Shown: piece after piece, positions 31,116 to 59,778 of the stretch
Numbering within the stretch: position 1 is the first letter of the stretch
Layout: each line of letters opens with the position of its first letter
Assembly: GCA_018389105.1 (NCBI GenBank)
Contig: JACATO010002192.1
Coordinates: 248,001 to 312,000 of the forward strand
Reading direction: 5' to 3'
Origin: Nautilus pompilius
Taxonomy: Eukaryota > Mollusca > Cephalopoda > Nautilida > Nautilidae
DNA: 64,000 nucleotides
Made by a program: the position numbers and the translations under genes
The notes under the pieces: generated by a model
What the model saw: only the letters and a program-made list of their open reading frames with translations
The model's database searches: none
What the model was told of the DNA's origin: nothing

Positions 31116-33091
31116 CTATTATCATACTGAGACCAGATTCAGATTAATGTACAGTCACTTTAAAAAAAATCAGAACAGAATTCAATCCCCCCAACCCTCC
31201 ATAAGCATGTTTCTGCATATTCATCTTTAAAGAGCATCATTTATCGAATAAACTTAGTAATTACTGTTACCTGTAGCTAATAAAGTCATATGTATAATTA
31301 ATAAGTATAATTATACATTAAGGGAACCATTTACTAAACTTTTTCTGGTAACTGGAGCCTTTAAAAAGAAAACAACAATACAAATAAAGGGGCGTTTCTT
31401 AATTAGAAAAGAACGAATAAATGTAATATAAACAAAAACAAGCAAAAGGTTATTATTATTAACCGCCACCATCACTTTCGAGAATTTGAGAAAGAAAAAA
31501 AACAAAACAAAAAAAAAGGGTTTTGATTAATTTCGAGACGGCCCCTTGTCCGCAACCACTCTCGGCGTGCAGGGAGGCGGCCCCTAGTTACGACACAGTT
31601 CGCAACATCAACGCCAGAACATGATACAACTCCAATAGGGTGAAGCTTATTTTCCCAGCGGGAAAAGCTATTTCTTTAAAGGGTTATGATTATGCTGAAG
31701 TGTTGGATTACACTTACATTCTCCTAAAGTCCAAGCCATGAATCAAAAATAATCCGGCAGCTTACACAACCGTGTTATTCGTTGTTTTGTTTCACCTGGG
31801 CAAATGTCATCGAATGTCCCAGAATGTGAAGTGGGGGAGGCATCGAATGGCCGGCCACCCCCCTAACCCCCACCCACCAACTCCTTTAAAAACAAATTAT
31901 CTTCCGTCTATTTTTAGTAGTTTGGATGGTAAGTAATTTTAGGAGAAAACAAAGGGCACTCTTCCATCCACTAGACTCGGGACACCTCCCTCCCTCCCAC
32001 CCGGGTCCCCAGATAGGGGGCGCGAGGGCCACGTATTACTGTTATTAGTTCTCTGTCTCTCTCTCCGGATTCAGGGAGAAGCAGCGACCGACCCCCTCGC
32101 GATGATAACCGGGAGTGGGTGCCCGGAGGAACCGGCGGCACCATGGCAAGAAAAAGGGGGCGTGGCAGGTGAACGATGGAATTGAGGATTCGGGGTGACG
32201 AGGAGGGGGAACTGGGTTTACAAAATAAGGGCTGCTACGTACGTTGGGGGTGGCCAGCCGGAAGACGGGGCATAAATCACGCGTGTTAAAGCGACAGGTC
32301 CCCCCCCCCACCGAGGGGCCGGGCGTGACCGGCCGCAGCCACCATCGCGCCTCCAGGAAGTGTTCATTTTCGCCGACAGAAGCGGGTTTGGGGGAGTTTC
32401 CCCCTCCCCCCCCAAACCAGGCGCCATTTTCCGCTTCTCGGGTCCGTTCCGGGCCGGGCCGAGCCGAGCCGGAGACCGCGCCGCTGTCGTGAACTCTCGT
32501 TCAGAGGTCACGACACGGACGCATCTTTAAAGCTCCCACGCCTACTGACAGGTAACAATGGCCGGCCGGACAGGGGCCGCCCACCACCCATTTAAGTAAA
32601 TACATGACACTTTTTTTTTTTTTTTTTTTTTGTCCGCTCGAAGCGCAATTCGATGCCCCGAGACACAGCCCGACTGTGTCCCCGTCTCTCTCCGCCGACG
32701 GCCCCCCCCCACCACAACCTCATCTACGTGTAACAATACTTCCTCACATCAGCGTCGCGAGGCGAGACTCGGGGCCTTAATACACTAACAGTCAGCAGTT
32801 TCTGGGGATCCAGGGCGGCCGCGACGAATCGATTAACCCTCCTTCCCGCGTGACACACCCCTCGATCCCCGGCCGGCCGCTGTTGTAAATAAGAAGTATT
32901 ATCCCCATTTCGGTGGGAGCAAAAACACGTATCCCTTTAAGGGAGGGGGGGAGTCGTAATCCATACCCCGGCCCCTCTCCCCCCCCCCCACTCACCAGAA
33001 CTTTTTCGAGAGTTAGCTAACTTTTTTTTGTTGTTTTCTTAAGTTAATTAACAGGTAAACAAATGCTCACGAGGGGGGTGGGGACCCTTAC

Positions 33092-33601
33092 CTGATCCTT
33101 GGCGAAGACGAACCATGTGTCCAGGATGAGTCGCAGGCGGTTTTCGTGAAACTTCTTCGTCGTCTTGACGCTGATGAAGATGTCATCGAGTTCGGTGGGC
33201 CTGGCCGTCCGGGTGCTCCGCCAAGAAGCGGCGGCGGCGGCGGCCCCCTCCTCCTCCTGGCGCGGGGGGGAGCCCCCCGGGTCGGCGGGGCGGTCGTCGT
33301 AGACCGACTTGGCGCTCCTCCGCTTCCGTCGCAACTGCACGTCGAGCAGCGACCGGGTGTCGCCCGAATCAACAGGTTGGTTCGACCTCCAGAAGTTGCT
33401 CGGTCGTCGGCCATGCTGCTGCTGCTGATGCTGCTGCTGCTGCTGCTGCTGCTGCTCCTTCGTCGCCGGCGGCCGGGGCACCCCAGCCGAGTCCAGCCAG
33501 CACAACTCCCGGGGGACCCTCCCCAGGTAGACGACGTTCAGGAACAGCGTGCAGGCTACGAACACGGACCCGAGTGCCGCCTTTCGTAGGGTGATGCGCA
33601 T
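33092..33601 (-). CDS. fng: fringe exon 1 (signal anchor, stem, start of glycosyltransferase domain)
   Basis: First coding exon of fringe, the Golgi GT31 enzyme that adds GlcNAc in beta-1,3 linkage to O-fucose on Notch EGF repeats. It has 170 codons. Residues 1-27 form a basic start (MRITLRK) and a hydrophobic segment, as in a type II signal anchor. A low-complexity stem follows, with Q8-H-Q4-H at about 50-63, RRKRR at 91-95 and a six-alanine run at about 120-125. The conserved domain begins at residue 136 with TELDDIFISVKTTKKFH, nearly identical to Drosophila fringe as I know it, and ends at AKDQ. The exon ends at CAG|GTAAGG in phase 0. The ATG at 33599-33601 is the start: the frame continues upstream only to a GTG at 33647-33649 and a TAG at 33659-33661. 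The family call is very secure. The exact Met could change if an upstream coding exon exists, but the in-frame stop argues against that. Confidence 0.95.
33413..33457 (-). repeat. CAG repeat coding polyQ/H in fringe exon 1
   Basis: On the coding strand: GAG, then CAG x8, CAT, CAG x4, CAT. No CAA codon breaks the runs, so the tract is a pure trinucleotide repeat prone to length change. It lies in the stem region, outside the catalytic domain. Confidence 0.95.
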
Positions 33602-33821
33602 AACCCCCTGTCCCAGCTTTCCCAACTGACATCGAGCGTCGAATCCCACGCCGCCGACCTACGGAGTGCCGGGGGAAGCCATGGGAGGAAGCTGATGACC
33701 ACTTGTACTTCTCCCCTCCGCCGAATCACGTCGGAGGAAAAAAAAAAAAAAAAAAAAAAGTACAGAGGTCAAAGTTATAAAGGTCATCGAGCATGCGCGG
33801 GCGGCGGCACTTCCGCCACGC
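33602..33821. promoter_or_regulatory. shared bidirectional promoter of fringe and syntaxin 8
   Basis: Only 220 bp separate the two start codons, so both 5' UTRs and core promoters must fit here unless noncoding first exons lie elsewhere. No TATA box was seen in a convincing position. GCATGCGC at 33791-33798 is an NRF1-like half site. CACTTCCG at 33808-33815 fits an ETS/GABP site. Both are typical of housekeeping bidirectional promoters. A run of 22 A residues (33738-33759) lies between the genes and could exclude nucleosomes. The short distance is seen directly; promoter function is inferred. Confidence 0.7.
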
Positions 33822-33841
33822 ATGATGGCCAACGATCCCTG
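33822..33841 (+). CDS. stx8: syntaxin 8 exon 1 (MMANDPW)
   Basis: A 20-base first coding exon reading ATG ATG GCC AAC GAT CCC TG, then donor CCCTG|GTGAGT. The split TG|G codon completes Trp in exon 2, giving (M)MANDPW-LTDHETC, which parallels the human syntaxin 8 N-terminus MAPDPW. Two adjacent in-frame ATGs are present. The second has the better context (A at -3, G at +4), so initiation may occur at either. No in-frame stop was found in the 60 bases immediately upstream, so the start rests on homology. The exon lies 220 bp from the fringe start codon on the opposite strand. Confidence 0.88.
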
Positions 33842-34285
33842 GTGAGTAGAACGGCACCGGTTCTTTCCTCCTCTCCCCACCCCCCTTTTTTTTTTTTTTG
33901 TTTTTGTTTTTGTTTTTGTTTTGCTTAAATTCGCGTTCGGCACCGACATTATCCCTTACCTGTTCCCGTCTCTCCCAGACATCTGCCTGCTTGTGTTTCA
34001 GAGGCAGCGACGATGAACAAAGCATCCACCATTGAAACTCGGTCGGGGGGGCGGGGTCCGGGTGGGGAGGGGAAATAAGGGGGCGAGTGGGACAGCCGAC
34101 AGACAGACACCCTTTAAAACGTCCGTCCCCCCCCCTTTTCTGAGAAGGTGTTGAAGCCCCTCCCTCCCCCCTCGGTGAATGCTGCGCGACAGCCGAATGA
34201 TTCTCTCACTTCCTGCCGTTGATTTTAGGTTCTTTCAGAAACACATTTCGGTGACCGGTCTTCTCTTGTGCGTCTTACCTTTACC

Positions 34286-34489: not shown

Positions 34490-34615
34490 GACCCCCACCC
34501 CACTCTACCACCCCAAACCCAACCCCCACCCCACTCTACCACCCCAAACCCAACCCCCACCCCACTCTACCAACCCTCACTCCACTCTACCACCCCAAAC
34601 CCAACCCCCACCCCG
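34490..34615. repeat. 31-bp C-rich minisatellite
   Basis: About four copies of a 31-bp unit combining CCCCCACCCCACTCTACCA and CCCCAAACCCAA; the third copy is shortened. One strand is almost free of G, so the other is a run of G clusters with quadruplex potential. It lies about 650 bp downstream of the syntaxin 8 start codon. Confidence 0.9.
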
Positions 34616-35525: not shown

Positions 35526-38302
35526 ACTCTGATGTGTTAGAGAAGATTAAGGAAAACCATGCTGCTTATTAGTTCAAACATAGTGTTCCATTGTGGGCCA
35601 GAGTGAGTGCACAAACCTAGACATCCAGTAGTAATTGCTAGTTTAAAATTAGCACTAGAACTACCCAAGGTACATGTATATCTATAACTGCTGGAGCAGG
35701 GATTTTGATTGCTGTATTAAAAGTCTCAGAAGAATTTTTCTGTGACGTTCAAATTTTTTTTCAAAATGTTCATACACTATGGGGATTACATTTCCTTTTT
35801 TAATGTTCAAAATGCAGAATGTTAAAAAAAATATCTAGTACTTTGTGGTGTCTATTGCAATCAATGCGCACATGGCACATGCACAGTGTGCTTGCCATTT
35901 TATATTTCTTGCTTATGGCAGTTTTCATGACATCTGGCCTAATACATTGGCTCTGAGTGTTGTGGGGTTATAAAAGTCTCTTTGGGATCATCTTTTCATT
36001 CTTGATGTCAACAGAAGGATAAAGCATGCCGAATAAAATGACATTTTTATCTTGGCTTGCACTTGTAGGTTGTTAGGGTGTGGCCAGAGGGCTCCAGCCG
36101 AGTAGAACTCTATATTGAAGTCCACTGCTGATGCTGTGCTGACTAGGCTTAGGAGTTGTCAACAGTAACATTCCTACCTTTTCCTGGTTAGGGCTCCATT
36201 AGGTTAAGTTTGTCTGGTTTTCTAACCATATGCTGAATTCTTCAACACTTTGGTTTGGAAAAGGGAGCTCATTGACTTAGATGTTGGCAAAAAATCCAAT
36301 TCCACACATCTGATGCCTGGCCAAGTTTCTTGTTTTGAAGACGCTGACTTATGGTTGTTTTCAAGTTAAAAAGCAGGATACATGATTTCCGAATATATGT
36401 TTTGTGCCATGGTTTGGTGAAAGAAATTGTAGCCCACACGTACTGAACCACAAGCTTTTCACTGATATGCTTCATGATCCTACATTAGTTAAATAAATGC
36501 ATCCAATTTCTCCAAAGAGATTGATCATGAGTCATCCCAGAGTTATCAGTAGATCAATGTATGCGGCAAAGCACAGGCTTATGTATAAGAGATGTAAAGT
36601 ACTTAATATGCTTTCTTCAGGGCTGTAGTATGGGGTTGGTTCTGGAACTTCCTACAGCATGTTCTGTTGAACAATTCTTCCCACAGCTTTGCACAACAGG
36701 ATTTACAACATCTCAGACAACAGCATTGTAAGCTTTCTCTTATTTTCTTGATGATGCCACTCACACCTAACCCGGGGTGGTACATAACCCTGTATCCCAC
36801 ATTCATGCATTGCTACTTGTCTGCTCAAGATGACATCTTTGCATGGTTTGAAATTTCATATTAGATACATAAAAGTTGCTAAATAAATAAACTGTAGAAA
36901 AGTAAAAAAATCCACAGGCCTTTATGCTGAACAAACCGGGTGGAGCGCATTTAAAAGATTAACCTTATATTGAGAATATGGATGGTTTCTTTTTGATCTT
37001 CCCTGTCAGTTCATCAGTACATATTTATTCCAGTTTCCTCCCACAGCTAAACAAAGGGGTTCTAGTAGGGACCATTCATACCTGACTGAAAATGGAAGTA
37101 CAAAGTGCAGGTATGGCAAATAGTTGTTAGCGCAACGTCACCTGGCCATTCTAAAAGTGTAGATAATTACGATTACGAGGGAAGGGGAACATTCCCTGTT
37201 CATGGTCCTGTAATTCATTTTTTCCCCTAAATCTTGTTCGATTTTTTGTTTTTTTAAATGTTTATTAACTCACTCTTCTGTGATTATCTCCCCATTGCGT
37301 ATGTAACTCTTCACACATTCAGATATTTCTTTACCACTTCCAACCATCTGGCCAATAATTGCAAATGAAAGCAAGATGTTTGGTCTTTGAAAAATGTGTG
37401 TACATCAACTGATGATCAGGTAAAAACAGGAATTTTAATTAAAAAAACAAACTTGGTAGTAATGTTGCAGAGTGTGAGAAACAGCTTTTACATATGTAGT
37501 TTATATGTTGCACTTCTGAACGAGATTGGGATCATCGTTGACAACAACATCTTCAGAATCAACTGCTTCCTCATATTCTTTTAAGATAATTTGCAACCTC
37601 TCAGCTTCCATCTTTTGATCCATCTAGAAATGAAGAACAAAGAATCTGAGAGGTGTAAAGAGCTTAGAAAATAGTTTTTGACAATTGTGTTCATAATATT
37701 AGCATAAACTTTGGTAACTATTGATGCCACACACATGTGGAATCCCATTCAACTTGTTCCATGGCCATGGCTCAGCTGTAACCAGATGCAACTTGGTTGA
37801 TAGGCCCACTCTGTTTGATAGGTGTGACAATTCAGCTAGAAGCCATGTATTAGCAGTCATGAAACTAAAACATTTTGGGTTTTGTTGCACCACTACCAGG
37901 TTAGAGGAGGGAAAAAGAAACTCGGGTTAACTAACCATTTTTCTTTTTGCCTTTAGAAAATAGCTATACTTGGTGCAAGAGAGGTAACTTGTCAGATGTT
38001 ACGCAATTTTCATGAGCATCTTTGTTACCCGTCATATTGCTATAACCTGGATTGTTTGTTTTGGATATATAAAATAATATAAGTAAACTGATGTTTGGTT
38101 TCTTCTTTTTTAGTCTGTTTCTTAATGTAGGTAAAACCTTGACGTTCCTGAGAGGAGGAGGAGAAGTTTTTATTCGTTAAGGTCCTACTTTCTGTTTGGG
38201 CAGAAGGGGTTAATAACTGGTAATTGATCTACTGAAACTAACTAGTCTTACTGTCTCTGGCTTTATATATATATGTATATGTTTCTTTTCCCCCCCTTTC
38301 AG

Positions 38303-38402
38303 GTTAACTGATCATGAAACCTGTGCCCACTTGGGCCAGGAGATCATGGAGAAAATCAATGAACGGAACAAGCATTCCAGAACAAGCTCTTCATACACCA
38401 AG
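38303..38402 (+). CDS. stx8: syntaxin 8 exon 2 (start of N-terminal helical domain)
   Basis: A 100-base exon: one base completes Trp, then 33 codons beginning LTDHETCAHLGQEIMEKINE and ending SSSYTK. Human syntaxin 8 has STCQIAQEIAEKIQQRN at this place, so the QEIxEKI..RN pattern identifies it. This is the first helix of the N-terminal three-helix (Habc-like) domain of this Qc-SNARE. Syntaxin 8 works with syntaxin 7, Vti1b and VAMP8 in late endosome fusion. The acceptor is a strong C/T tract ending TTTCAG and the donor is ACCAAG|GTATGT, phase 0. Confidence 0.94.
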
Positions 38403-38437
38403 GTATGTGGACATGGCTGGTCTAGCTTTCACCTGTC

Positions 38438-40250: not shown

Positions 40251-42964
40251 AAAATTGCCATCATCCAAACTTAGATTATGGGGAAACGACTGCGTTGGTT
40301 TGATGTTACCATGGTGTAAAGCCTGTTATGCACAGAATTTGAATGTTACCTGTAAAAAAGGTATTTTAAAAACTGAAGAAATAATGGCAGCAATCACACA
40401 TTGTGAGAGCCACTTCGAAGTGTATTCCTTACGTTTGCTCCACTAAAGGAATCCCATCAGATGATGTTGCAGGGGGGAGGGGTGTGCTTTTCTTCGTTTT
40501 GTAAAACCACCTTGGAAATGCAGAAATGCGTAGCAGTGCGCAACCAAAATTAATTTTGTAGATTGTAGAGGAGGTGCGAGAGTATGGTTCCTTTTAATGA
40601 CACGACTCCTGCTATCCACAGGATGTTTGAAAGAATCAAGACTGTCTTGATTGTGTTTTAGTACTCTGTTGTCTTATGCTTCAGTAAATACCCATCCCTT
40701 TCTGTAGGACTTTTTTGGCACACAAATATTGTGTGAGTTTACTTCGTAGACATGACTGCCCTTGATTGTTGCATAGCTGTCTCATTTCCAGTCATTTGTA
40801 GCCTACTTAAGAGTCCCTTTTATCACTAGAGTATCTGCACTGGTGATAAACAGATTGTTTATTCTTGACGTTTGCTTGTCGATGCACCTCCCTTAAGTAC
40901 GTGGGGTATCTCACTGCTCGGTAATACTTTGGAAAGTGCTTCTTTCTCGGCCAGTGTGACTGCCACATCGCCGATCACATAAACTCTGTATTTAAGTAGC
41001 ACTGACAACATATAAACAAACATAGTCTGGAGAAGAGTTAGTGTCAAGGACAGCAAGCTCCAACAACTGAGAGGTGGAAGGAAATTTGTTGTGGACAGGA
41101 AAAGAATTTGAGAGCGGATACAACAAGAGAAAAACCGATTGCAGTTCTACCTGAGCCTGGGGATGGTTGGAAACTGCAAGATGCTGAAATAGAACAGAGA
41201 TAACATTTTTTTTTTTTTTTTTTTTAAATGGGTTTCTGAATCACAGGGTGATGGATAAGACTTAATGCACAGTGAGTTTTAATTTTTTCTGGCTGCAGAA
41301 TCCTTTGCAATTACAGTTTAAATGTGTTGGAAAATCAGAAATATATATTCTGTTTATTGTTGCTTGGAGATGTTCTGATGTTATCTAGTTCTTACCTAGT
41401 GATGCATCAGCTTTTGCCAGTTGTAGGAAGGTTTGAGTTTCAGTTTTCATCAGATGTTTCTACTCTTTTTTTTGGCTCCAGTAATCACCCACCCCAATGT
41501 CAGGATCTTGACAAGTGCCAGTAAACACAGTGCCCAAGTGACAATCAGAACTAATACAGTAAATGTAAGATAACACAGCGGCTGGGAATCACAGAGAAAT
41601 CTATGCGAATTTTTCATTGTGTGTGAACAGGACAGCATTTCGATCATGGAAGATAATTGAGCGCCACTTTCATTGCATGCGCACGAGACTCTGTGATAAC
41701 CAGAGTAGATTACTTAAGTTTGAATAATTAATAGTAAAAAAAAAAGAAGAGAGTTTTGAAAGACTTAAGAGGATGTAAAAGAGAATGCTAGAAACTAAGA
41801 GCAAGAGATGTGCATTATATGATTAATGAGGCAGCTCTGTAGAGACTAATTTGTACTACACTACTCTAAAAAGCCTGTATTATTCAACACATGCCAAGCC
41901 GTGGGGAGGCGCAGTGACACATACACACAGTGACCTTCTCCTTAATGTAACCCTTTATAACAACAACAAATCTGTATAAGGGAGGAAAGAACTGATGTCA
42001 CCGTAAAAGTTAAAAAGCAATTGTCTTCACTTATGTGATAATTTCTGAGGTCCACGGTGGCACAGAATCCAGAAACACAAAAATGAGACATTCTTCTAAT
42101 GAACTTTTCTATTACACTGAATTAGACTTATTTTAAATTGCTTGAGGCTTTAATTAGGGTCTGGTATTATGGAAGTACTGACTTCCCCAACCATGCTGCT
42201 GCCACCAATTATTCCACAATAAAACCAAGTTGTTTTCAGCTTTTATCCTGGTGAAACGCTTGTCCAATCTGGTATTGTTTATGATGCTGAGTCATGACAC
42301 TACTGGAGGGTTGGAAAGAGAAGAATGAAAAAAGTTAAACGGTAAACAGTAGAAAGGGTAATACAAGTTTCTTGTTTAAAAAAGAAAAATGTATGTCAGC
42401 TGGAAGTGTATACTTGGAAACTGACGGGTAATTAACAATGCATTTGGAATCCTAGCTTTAAAACTGAAGGCTTCAGGGTATTTTAAACTTGAGTGGAACT
42501 TGTGCAAGAAGCACTAGAGAGCATGTGTAAGTATCAGGGAAGAAATTCAAGGGCAGAAAGAGGGATTAAACTGACTAGTAATAGAAATAACTGTTTTATT
42601 GTAACTAAACAGATGTGTTGAAGTTCACATCTGTAGACCAAAACCTGGTTTTATTTTTAAAAAGGAAGGAAAACAAGAACAATGGACACTGGTTATACAA
42701 GGAGGAAGAGAAAGAGAGAGGGTTTTGTTGTTTAAAATCCAAATCAGTTGATTGATTTTTATTTGTTTGTTAGGGATTTCTTTCAAGTAAATTATTGGTA
42801 GTGAAATACCTGGCATGTGAGTCGGTCTTTAATTATTTTCCTTGCCTTAATATTTATTAGCCTTCTGGTTTTGATGAAATTTGATGACTGGTCTCTGCAA
42901 CTGTCATCATTGCTAAACTCATGGTCGGCGATTTTGCTAATATTTATTTTACTTATCCCTCTTC

Positions 42965-43536
42965 TCTCTCTCTCTCTCTCTCTGTTTAATGACGTCATGT
43001 CTCTCTCTCCGTAATGACGTCATGTCTCTCTGTAATGACGTCATGTCTCTCTCTGTAATGAACATCATCTCTCTCTGTGTAATGAACATCATCTCTGTGT
43101 AATGACGTCATGTCTCTCTCTCCAATGACGTCATGTCTCTCTGTAATGACGTCATGTCTGTGTAATGACGTCATGTCTCTCTGTAATGACGTCATGTCTG
43201 TGTAATGACGTCATCTCTCTCTCTCTCTCGATCTCTCTCTCTCTCTCTCTCTGTAATGACGTCATGTCTCTCTCTGTAATGAACATCATCTCTCTCTGTT
43301 TAATGACGTCATGTCTCTCTCTCCGTAATGACGCTATATCTTCCTGTAATGAGGTTCTCTCTCTCTCCGTAATGACACTATCTTCCTGTAATAAGGTTCT
43401 CTCTCTCTCTCTCCGTAATGACACTATATCTTCCTGTAATAAGTCTCTCTCTCTCTCTCTCTCCGTAATGACGCTATATCTTCTGTAATGAGGTTCTCTC
43501 TCTCTCCGTAATGACGCTATATCTTCCTGTAATAAG

Positions 43537-43575
<39 letters not shown>

Positions 43576-43620
43576 ACGCTATATCTTCCTGTAATGAGGT
43601 TCTCTCTCTCTCTCTCTGCT
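42965..43620. repeat. tandem array of TGACGTCA (CRE) units within CT-rich satellite
   Basis: About 650 bp of units of roughly 19-25 bp. The left part repeats TAATGACGTCATGTCTCTCT. Eleven perfect TGACGTCA palindromes start at 42990, 43015, 43036, 43103, 43126, 43147, 43166, 43187, 43206, 43257 and 43304. Three further units carry TGAACATCA (43059, 43083, 43280). From about 43325 the units change to TGACGCTATATCTTCCTG alternating with TAATGAGGTTCTCTCTC. TGACGTCA is the consensus CREB/ATF binding site. The array is seen directly; any regulatory role is inference. Long open frames across it are by-products of the repeats. Confidence 0.95.
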
Positions 43621-49214: not shown

Positions 49215-49316
49215 AATGCAGCGGGAACTGGAGAGACGGGAGATGATGCTGGACAGTTTAGTTACAAAAGAGATGCAGATTGACCGAGCATTCAAAAATG
49301 CAAGCCCAGAGTCCAG
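49215..49316 (+). CDS. stx8: syntaxin 8 exon 4
   Basis: A 102-base exon continuing as (I)MQRELERREMMLDSLVTKE and then MQIDRAFKNASPES plus AG. Human syntaxin 8 has QLEGDRRQNLLDDLVTRERLLLASFKN, so RRxxxLDxLVTxE and FKN are shared. It is the third helix of the N-terminal domain. The acceptor is GATTCTTAAG and the donor is CCAG|GTAGGC, phase 2. In-frame translation through exons 1-4 gives about 105 residues, close to the same point in the human protein (236 residues in total). Confidence 0.93.
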
Positions 49317-52147: not shown

Positions 52148-52184
<37 letters not shown>

Positions 52185-52206
52185 GTCTGTCTGTCTGTCT
52201 GTCTGT
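52148..52206. repeat. (CT)n(GTCT)n compound microsatellite
   Basis: About 16 CT units run directly into about six GTCT units, followed by a short GT tract. Confidence 0.95.
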
Positions 52207-57193: not shown

Positions 57194-57402
<209 letters not shown>

Positions 57403-59439: not shown

Positions 59440-59778
59440 AATTCTCTCTCTCTCCTCTCCCTCCCTCTCTCCTCCCTCCCTCTCTCCTCCGTCTCTCCAC
59501 TTCTCTCTCTCTCTCTTCTGTCTCTCCACTTCTCTCTCCCTCTCTCTCCCTCCCTCCCTCTCTCCTCCGTCTCTCCACTTCTCTCTCTCTCTCTTCTGTC
59601 TCTCCACTTCTCTCTCCCTCTCTCCTCTGTCTCTCCACTTCTCTCTCTCTCTCCTCTGTCTCTCCTCTCTCTCTCTCTCTCCCTCCCTCCCTCTCTCTCC
59701 GTCTCTCCACTTCTCTCTCTCTCTCTTCTGTCTCTCCACTTCTCTCTCTCTCTCTCTCTCCACTTCTCTCTCTCTCAG
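59440..59778. repeat. CT-rich higher-order minisatellite
   Basis: About 340 bp with a recurring module of CTGTCTCTCCACTTCTCTC followed by (TC)n or CCCTCCCTCC. The module repeats about eight times. The long open frames on both strands (up to 174 codons) are low-complexity Arg-Glu or Ser-Leu and are rejected as genes. Confidence 0.95.

What the first reader, a model, noticed from the sequence alone, without database searches (positions are those of the whole stretch)
42965..43620. Eleven perfect CREB/ATF palindromes in an intronic satellite
A tandem repeat whose core is exactly TGACGTCA, kept intact in eleven units while the spacing drifts. If the sites are unmethylated and accessible, this would be a dense CREB/ATF or bZIP binding platform, able to act as an enhancer or a sink. 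CpG loss by deamination would be expected in a methylated repeat, yet the central CpG is kept in the left block. I do not know this array as a described element.
Basis: partly seen in the sequence, partly recalled or inferred. Interest (0 to 1): 0.8.

Follow-up and report, generated by a model that had tools for sequence, protein, structure and literature searches.

The report
Dispersed CRE-core minisatellite in a mollusc
The eleven CREB-site palindromes are one copy of a short repeat found at thousands of places inside CT-rich tracts of this mollusc genome; that is striking, but nothing found here shows that the cell keeps the sites for use.

Summary
Observation confirmed: eleven exact TGACGTCA at 42990-43311 (0.30 expected), all in the left half of the array. 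Three more left-half units have lost the motif; the right half has none. The array lies in a syntaxin-8-like intron of a mollusc.

It belongs to a genome-wide minisatellite: islands near TGTAC-TGACGTCA-T inside (TC)n tracts. With the core left free, TCTCTGTAC-N8-TCTCTC has 12,606 places (reversed 179); 6,596 hold the exact palindrome. TGACGTCA occurs 93,914 times. Of the first 100 listed 12-base islands with core and flank free, 83 are within one base of TGACGTCA.

Masked flanks of 34 stretches share one 24-base match, so no common carrier was seen. Orientation on the TC strand is 363 to 0.

The arguments for function are weak: when not selected for, the core is about as well kept as neighbouring island bases, and 15 of 20 unbiased arrays lie in DNA that is not CpG-depleted. 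Best reading: a dispersed repeat, probably spreading between TC tracts by homology. A CREB/ATF platform or sink is neither shown nor excluded.

The parts
42960..42983 (+). left bounding (TC)n tract
   Evidence: sequence; arrays elsewhere are bounded the same way, 30 of 35 on both sides
42979..43320 (+). left block: about 21-bp units TCTCTCTGTAATGACGTCATG, 14 islands, 11 with TGACGTCA and 3 with TGAACATCA
42990..43311 (.). span of the eleven exact CRE palindromes
43025..43085 (+). internal block, 98% like 43246-43306 (in-place duplication)
   Evidence: family D8
43246..43306 (+). second copy of that internal block
   Evidence: family D8
43314..43620 (+). right block: 44-bp units TCTCTCTCTCCGTAATGACGCTATATCTTCCTGTAATAAGGTTC; TGACGCTA x4, TGACACTA x2, no CRE
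33822..33841 (+). syntaxin-8-like exon 1 (MMANDPW...)
   Evidence: splice join read; no NCBIfam and no convincing PDB hit for the 40-residue piece
38303..38402 (+). syntaxin-8-like exon 2, upstream of the array
   Evidence: tblastn with human STX8 recalled from memory, E 0.044
49219..49311 (+). next syntaxin-8-like exon found, downstream of the array
   Evidence: tblastn E 0.014; stronger exon matches further on, E 5e-8 and 5e-6, outside the window
33092..33601 (-). fringe glycosyltransferase first coding exon, head to head with syntaxin-8 (start codons about 220 bp apart); left end placed at a GT donor by eye
   Evidence: Pfam PF02434, E 5.3e-12; sequence

Best explanation
SHOWN: the array is one copy of a dispersed minisatellite family of a mollusc genome. 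The unit is a short island (about TGTAC-TGACGTCA-T, here TGTAATGACGTCATG) set in (TC)n. The fetched arrays lie at unrelated loci, mostly start and end in TC tract, and have the island in one orientation on the TC strand in every case scored; this one has block duplications inside. INFERRED: the unit arose once in a TC tract and spread because TC tracts give homology for ectopic copying (gene conversion, or integration of circular repeat DNA). Once seeded, an array grows by unequal exchange and slippage. TC spacers change length fast while the non-repetitive island changes by point mutation, which gives intact cores with drifting spacing without selection. The consensus core is a perfect CREB/ATF site, so in unmethylated DNA the arrays may be bound as a by-product; no evidence here shows that binding keeps them.
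For: Core-free pattern 12,606 places, reversed 179; exact 6,596, reversed 0. TGACGTCA 93,914, reversed word 19,528. Flank- and core-free census: 20,532 islands; of the 100 listed, 44 hold the exact word and 83 are within one base, against about 0.2% of composition-matched random 12-mers. Masked flanks of 34 stretches: one match of 24 bases. TC-type tract on both ends in 30 of 35 arrays; island orientation 363 to 0 among cores flanked by TA. Internal block duplication in the window. Core about as well kept as neighbouring island bases when the listing does not select on it. CpG products are the commonest core variants, TGATGTCA 51 and TGACATCA 26 of 504 islands, though 42 TGATGTCA were counted in two stretches, L032 and L034.
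Against: In arrays picked for holding CRE pairs, non-CpG core positions vary less than the flank (0.96-0.98 match against 0.68-0.94), as selection would predict, though that sample favours intact cores. Arrays in CpG-depleted DNA, this one included, often keep the CpG, which youth explains only if such arrays are young. CpG loss in the core does not follow regional depletion in the 28 arrays tested (Spearman -0.16, p 0.42), and arrays in undepleted DNA can have lost many CpGs (L047, L048). Pairs deaminated alike are 32 (reversed 1), 10 of them in one stretch, against 347 intact pairs at the same spacing. TC tracts without CRE exist beside this array, so TC homology alone does not decide. No copying event was seen.
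Confidence: 0.62

Rival explanations
1. Selected CREB/ATF platform or sink: the arrays are kept because bZIP proteins bind them, as enhancers or as a reservoir that buffers CREB/ATF.
For: The core is the exact CRE consensus, 93,914 times. Array flanks are more often not CpG-depleted than systematic samples, 15 of 20 against 7 of 20, Fisher p 0.025 at a cut-off chosen afterwards, rank test p 0.017. CpG o/e is 0.85 in this array inside depleted DNA. Core variation is low in CRE-selected arrays. Spacings of 20-23 bp, about two helical turns, are the commonest in the fetched arrays (20 was selected for).
Against: Core not clearly better kept than its neighbours when left free; 6,010 of 12,606 islands have a changed core; spacing ranges from 10 to 59 bp among those under 60, and in the C1 listing 17, 23 and 25 are commonest.
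Confidence: 0.17
2. Transposon cargo: the arrays are the internal repeats of a Helitron-like element, as for many oyster satellites.
For: [quoted passage not shown] Molluscan genome.
Against: No sequence shared beside the arrays, beyond one 24-base match, in 34 stretches with 0.6 to 5.3 kb unmasked each.
Confidence: 0.1
3. Recombination-made: bZIP binding at CRE sites opens chromatin for meiotic breaks, and repair of these expands the arrays, as at the fission-yeast M26 hotspot.
For: All 11 sites here hold ATGACGT, the M26 heptamer (heptamer and role read in passages of PMC9775316).
Against: Elsewhere the base before the core is mostly C, not A: 76 of 91 islands in the free listing, 339 of 498 in fetched arrays. 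The same review says a TGACGTCA in ade6 is not bound by Atf1-Pcr1 and does not promote recombination.
Confidence: 0.07
4. Splicing-like motif: TACTGAC followed by CTCTCT resembles a branch point with polypyrimidine tract, and the arrays act in introns on RNA.
For: Sequence likeness only, branch-point consensus recalled. The array and the three other TC tracts found in the window read TC on the syntaxin-8 sense strand.
Against: The array here has TAATGAC, not TACTGAC; the GTCA that follows has no role in a branch point yet is about as well kept.
Confidence: 0.04

Closest known systems
Scattered satellite DNAs of bivalves (Crassostrea gigas satellitome, PMC8268682, passages read)
   Same: Short tandem arrays scattered over a mollusc genome, some next to a microsatellite.
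   Different: There mostly found with Helitrons, 160-180 bp units dominating and 21 bp the shortest; here an about 20-bp unit inside TC tracts, no shared flanking element seen in 34 stretches, and a transcription-factor consensus as core. TGACGT does not occur in that paper's main text.
Microsatellite-derived minisatellites (general class, recalled)
   Same: Units built on a TC run, growing in place by slippage and unequal exchange.
   Different: Such arrays are thought to arise independently with unlike units (recalled); here one island type accounts for 98 of the first 100 listed 12-base islands within three bases (random 13%).
cAMP response element (CRE), bound by CREB/ATF bZIP proteins (recalled)
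   Same: The core is the exact palindrome TGACGTCA.
   Different: CREs are known as single or few sites in promoters; here 2 to 89 exact copies per fetched stretch, binding untested.
Fission-yeast ade6-M26 CRE-like recombination hotspot (PMC9775316, passages read)
   Same: All eleven window sites contain ATGACGT.
   Different: A single point-mutation site, not a tandem array; most other scored copies of this family have C before the core and so lack the heptamer.

Membership tests
Dispersed minisatellite / satellite family | Head-to-tail units of about 10-100 bp | tested here: met
   21-bp and 44-bp units, TRF
Dispersed minisatellite / satellite family | Related arrays at many separate loci | tested here: met
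   12,606 core-free matches; 20,532 islands, the first 100 falling into 34 clusters
Dispersed minisatellite / satellite family | Not merely copies of one larger duplicated segment | tested here: met
   masked flanks of 34 stretches share one 24-base match
Helitron-associated satellite | Conserved element boxes beside the array | tested here: not met
   no shared flanks beyond one 24-base match in 34 stretches; known Helitron boxes themselves were not searched
Functional CRE platform | Consensus CRE core | tested here: met
   11 exact palindromes
Functional CRE platform | Core conserved better than its surroundings | tested here: inconclusive
   not clearly so in the core-free listing; so in CRE-selected arrays, which are biased; the mirror search on the flank did not complete
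Functional CRE platform | Bound by CREB/ATF in open, unmethylated chromatin | not testable with these tools
   no ChIP, ATAC or bisulfite data; CpG o/e is an indirect sign only
M26-type recombination hotspot | ATGACGT heptamer across the family | tested here: not met
   present at all 11 sites here, but C precedes the core in 76 of 91 listed islands and 339 of 498 fetched ones

The most novel reading that the evidence does not exclude
This mollusc carries tens of thousands of CREB/ATF sites in arrays that are unmethylated and bound, forming a genome-wide bZIP reservoir that sets how strongly cAMP or stress signals reach genes and that seeds new enhancers in introns; the arrays persist partly because bZIP binding keeps them open and free of CpG methylation, even inside methylated gene bodies such as syntaxin-8.
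Probability: 0.13. Interest if true: 0.88.

Novelty: new variant of a known kind. Interest (0 to 1): 0.6.

Why it matters
One short island with a perfect transcription-factor palindrome recurs at thousands of places inside TC tracts of one genome without a visible transposon. That makes two questions testable: how short tandem repeats disperse through the genome, and whether mass expansion of a factor's consensus site titrates or rewires that factor. Ten searches of the paper library, seven of them aimed at such arrays or at mollusc tandem repeats (17, 18, 44, 45, 46, 64, 106), showed no description of it in their listings; subscription papers and repeat databases were not searched.

Tried and rejected
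Single-copy oddity: rejected. Carried by a transposon: not supported; a first flank comparison without proper masking mostly re-found the arrays and was discarded. Core kept by selection: favoured by CRE-selected arrays but not clearly by the core-free listing. CpG retention as proof of lack of methylation: not accepted as a general argument. My own idea that core CpGs are lost where the region is CpG-depleted: only partly borne out. L045 (o/e 0.04) has none left and L046 (0.35) has 3 intact and 2 lost, but L047 (0.95) has 3 intact and 12 lost, L048 (0.76) 7 and 7, L049 (1.12) 18 and 9, and across 28 arrays there is no correlation (Spearman -0.16, p 0.42, a set with little spread in o/e). A first island census in the wrong TC phase (060 places, reversed 469) held only a minority of CRE-like islands by eye and was replaced, whose pattern reads the same backwards, so its printed control is no control. 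Exact pattern in viral contigs and genome contigs: 0 and 0, as expected for collections without animals. Rfam: 0 matches in the window. Dropped rows: 85 islands in exact 20-bp pairs, islands scoring under the alignment threshold, and arrays with fewer than 3 islands (29 of 34 arrays remain in the per-position table). In one search, 9 of 100 listed islands not in register or more than three bases from the core, which if anything favours the core. Two of the 34 stretches, L008 and L033, are not of the TC family; L033 also counts among the 35 arrays. One of the 20 flank stretches belongs to a cluster whose listed island is not in the CRE register (C1:129085); all 20 come from contigs C1, C2 and C5, while 15 of the 20 controls come from other contigs, so contig effects are not excluded.

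Full report
1. What is there. The window (G000:C2090:248001-312000 of a 727.6-Mb assembly) holds exactly eleven TGACGTCA, all at 42990-43311, against 0.30 expected. They lie in the left half of a two-part tandem array set in TC runs: about 21-bp units at 42979-43320, then 44-bp units at 43314-43620 that lack the palindrome. The left half has 14 islands: 11 intact and 3 reading TGAACATCA. The right half has TGACGCTA four times and TGACACTA twice. Two 61-bp blocks of the array are 98% alike, so part of the copy number is in-place duplication.

2. Where it is. Two genes stand head to head with start codons about 220 bp apart (sequence): fringe on the minus strand (PF02434, E 5.3e-12) and a syntaxin-8-like gene on the plus strand (exon join MMANDPW-LTDHETC...). 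tblastn with a human syntaxin-8 recalled from memory finds exons at 38295-38405, 49219-49311 and three places beyond the window, two of them at E 5e-8 and 5e-6; the two exons beside the array are weak alone (E 0.044 and 0.014), and an undetected exon between them is possible. The 40-residue N-terminal piece found no NCBIfam family and no convincing PDB match. The array is thus in a syntaxin-8-like intron, about 9.2 kb downstream of that gene's start codon. Fourteen haemocyanin beta-sandwich domains of the mollusc type (PF14830; its restriction to molluscs is recalled) lie in two loci of seven, with none in the 14 control genomes, and mark the animal as a mollusc.

3. It is one of very many. 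TGACGTCA-N12-TGACGTCA has 347 places, reversed pattern 0. With the core left free, TCTCTGTAC-N8-TCTCTC has 12,606 places, reversed 179; the exact core accounts for 6,596 of these, 52%, reversed 0. TGACGTCA occurs 93,914 times, its reversed word 19,528 times; the reversed word has no CpG, so it is only a rough control. Of the first 100 listed sites, covering about 160 kb of contig C1, 89 lie in 8 clusters of three or more. Leaving both core and flank free, CTCTCT-R-N10-R-TCTCTC has 20,532 places. Of the 100 listed, in 34 clusters, 44 contain the exact palindrome, 83 are within one base and 98 within three; random 12-mers of the same composition are within one base in about 0.2% and within three in about 13%. 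The listings show only the lowest-numbered contigs, so shares are from those, and a figure of thousands of arrays is an extrapolation from them. The tool calls counts of repeats lower bounds.

4. How the arrays are built. I fetched 33 stretches around CRE pairs and added the window's; two of the 33 (L008, L033) proved not to be of the TC family. With arrays and TC tracts masked, the 34 sequences (0.6 to 5.3 kb left unmasked in each) share one match of 24 bases, so no common carrier was seen. Of 35 arrays with at least four recognised islands, 30 have TC-type tract on both ends, 3 on one, 2 on neither, one of those two being L033. On the TC strand, cores flanked by TA have it in front 363 times and behind 0 times. 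This fits spread between TC tracts by homology, which would fix orientation; that step is inferred, not seen.

5. Is the core specially kept? In the 34 CRE-selected arrays (504 islands scored, 85 in exact 20-bp pairs left out) the six non-CpG core positions match in 0.96-0.98, the CpG positions in 0.88 and 0.92, and the flank G-T-A-C in 0.70, 0.93, 0.94 and 0.68. That looks like constraint, but those arrays were picked for intact cores. In the listing that does not ask for the core, cluster means are T .97, A .86, C .77 for the flank and .93 .88 .90 .92 .85 .95 .85 for the core; the first and last bases of the island were restricted to purines by the pattern, and only islands within three bases of the core were scored, which favours the core. 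No clear core-specific conservation is seen there. The mirror test on the flank did not complete by the tool.

6. CpG and methylation. The genome is a mosaic by CpG observed/expected: of 20 systematic stretches 13 are at 0.44 or below and 7 at 0.69 or above. The 33 fetched stretches have flank values of 0.81-1.40, but they were found by CpG-bearing cores. For 20 clusters chosen without that bias 15 exceed 0.6, against 7 of 20 controls (Fisher p 0.025 at a cut-off chosen afterwards, rank test p 0.017; the two sets come largely from different contigs). Arrays therefore lean towards undepleted DNA, where keeping CpG needs no explanation. Loss of the core CpG does not simply follow the region: L045 (o/e 0.04) has none of 42 counted cores with CpG and L046 (0.35) has 3 intact and 2 lost, but L047 (0.95), L048 (0.76) and L049 (1.12) have also lost 12, 7 and 9, and 28 arrays show no correlation. 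Of the five unbiased clusters at 0.23-0.53, three have intact islands listed, one keeps the CpG in a changed core, and one has lost it. Pairs deaminated alike number 32 (reversed 1), ten of them in one stretch of C294, against 347 intact ones. The window array (flank 0.31; array 0.85) keeps most CpGs, so it is young or locally unmethylated; these data do not tell which.

7. Function. The core is an exact CREB/ATF site (recalled consensus), and an array of eleven could bind such factors if open. Nothing here shows binding, accessibility or effect. The all-ATGACGT form of this array recalls the fission-yeast M26 hotspot, but the review read in passages says a plain TGACGTCA in ade6 is inactive (PMC9775316), and C, not A, precedes the core in 76 of 91 listed islands. 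I put a neutral dispersed repeat first (0.62), a selected platform or sink second (0.17), transposon cargo third (0.10).

8. Known or new. Scattered short satellites are known in bivalves, mostly tied to Helitrons (PMC8268682, passages); the review PMC10048060 was seen in passages, mostly its reference list. Ten library searches, seen as listings, showed no description of a CRE-core minisatellite in TC tracts. I rate it a new variant of a known kind: a dispersed minisatellite, unusual in its numbers, its TC setting and its transcription-factor core.

Noticed in passing
window 52148-52204, 57195-57401, 59443-59776: Other TC tracts in the same gene without any TGACGTCA (the last has its own 29-bp unit); all read TC on the plus strand, the sense strand of the syntaxin-8-like gene.
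   Followed up: partly
window about 32000-34000: CpG-rich stretch (o/e 0.83 in the 32-36 kb bin) at the shared fringe/syntaxin-8 start, in otherwise CpG-depleted DNA.
   Followed up: partly
window 33414-33456: TGC repeat, read on the minus strand as a glutamine run in the fringe first exon.
   Followed up: no
window about 2455-2750: Looks like a tRNA-derived SINE (internal promoter boxes recalled, not tested).
   Followed up: no
window 34491-34596: 31-bp ACCCC-rich tandem repeat just inside the syntaxin-8-like first intron.
   Followed up: no
L032 538-3592: Largest array fetched: 89 exact TGACGTCA in about 3 kb, plus 28 TGATGTCA.
   Followed up: partly
L033 1302-1771: A different tandem repeat with CREs, longer unit and no TC tract, so not of this family.
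   Followed up: no
L045: Family array in DNA of CpG o/e 0.04 in which all 42 counted cores have lost the CpG.
   Followed up: partly
L047, C1:1034800-1037200: Family array in undepleted DNA (o/e 0.95) that has nevertheless lost the core CpG in 12 of 15 counted units.
   Followed up: no
G000:C557:780470-791999 and C1362:511129-522124: Two haemocyanin loci with seven beta-sandwich domains each found.
   Followed up: no
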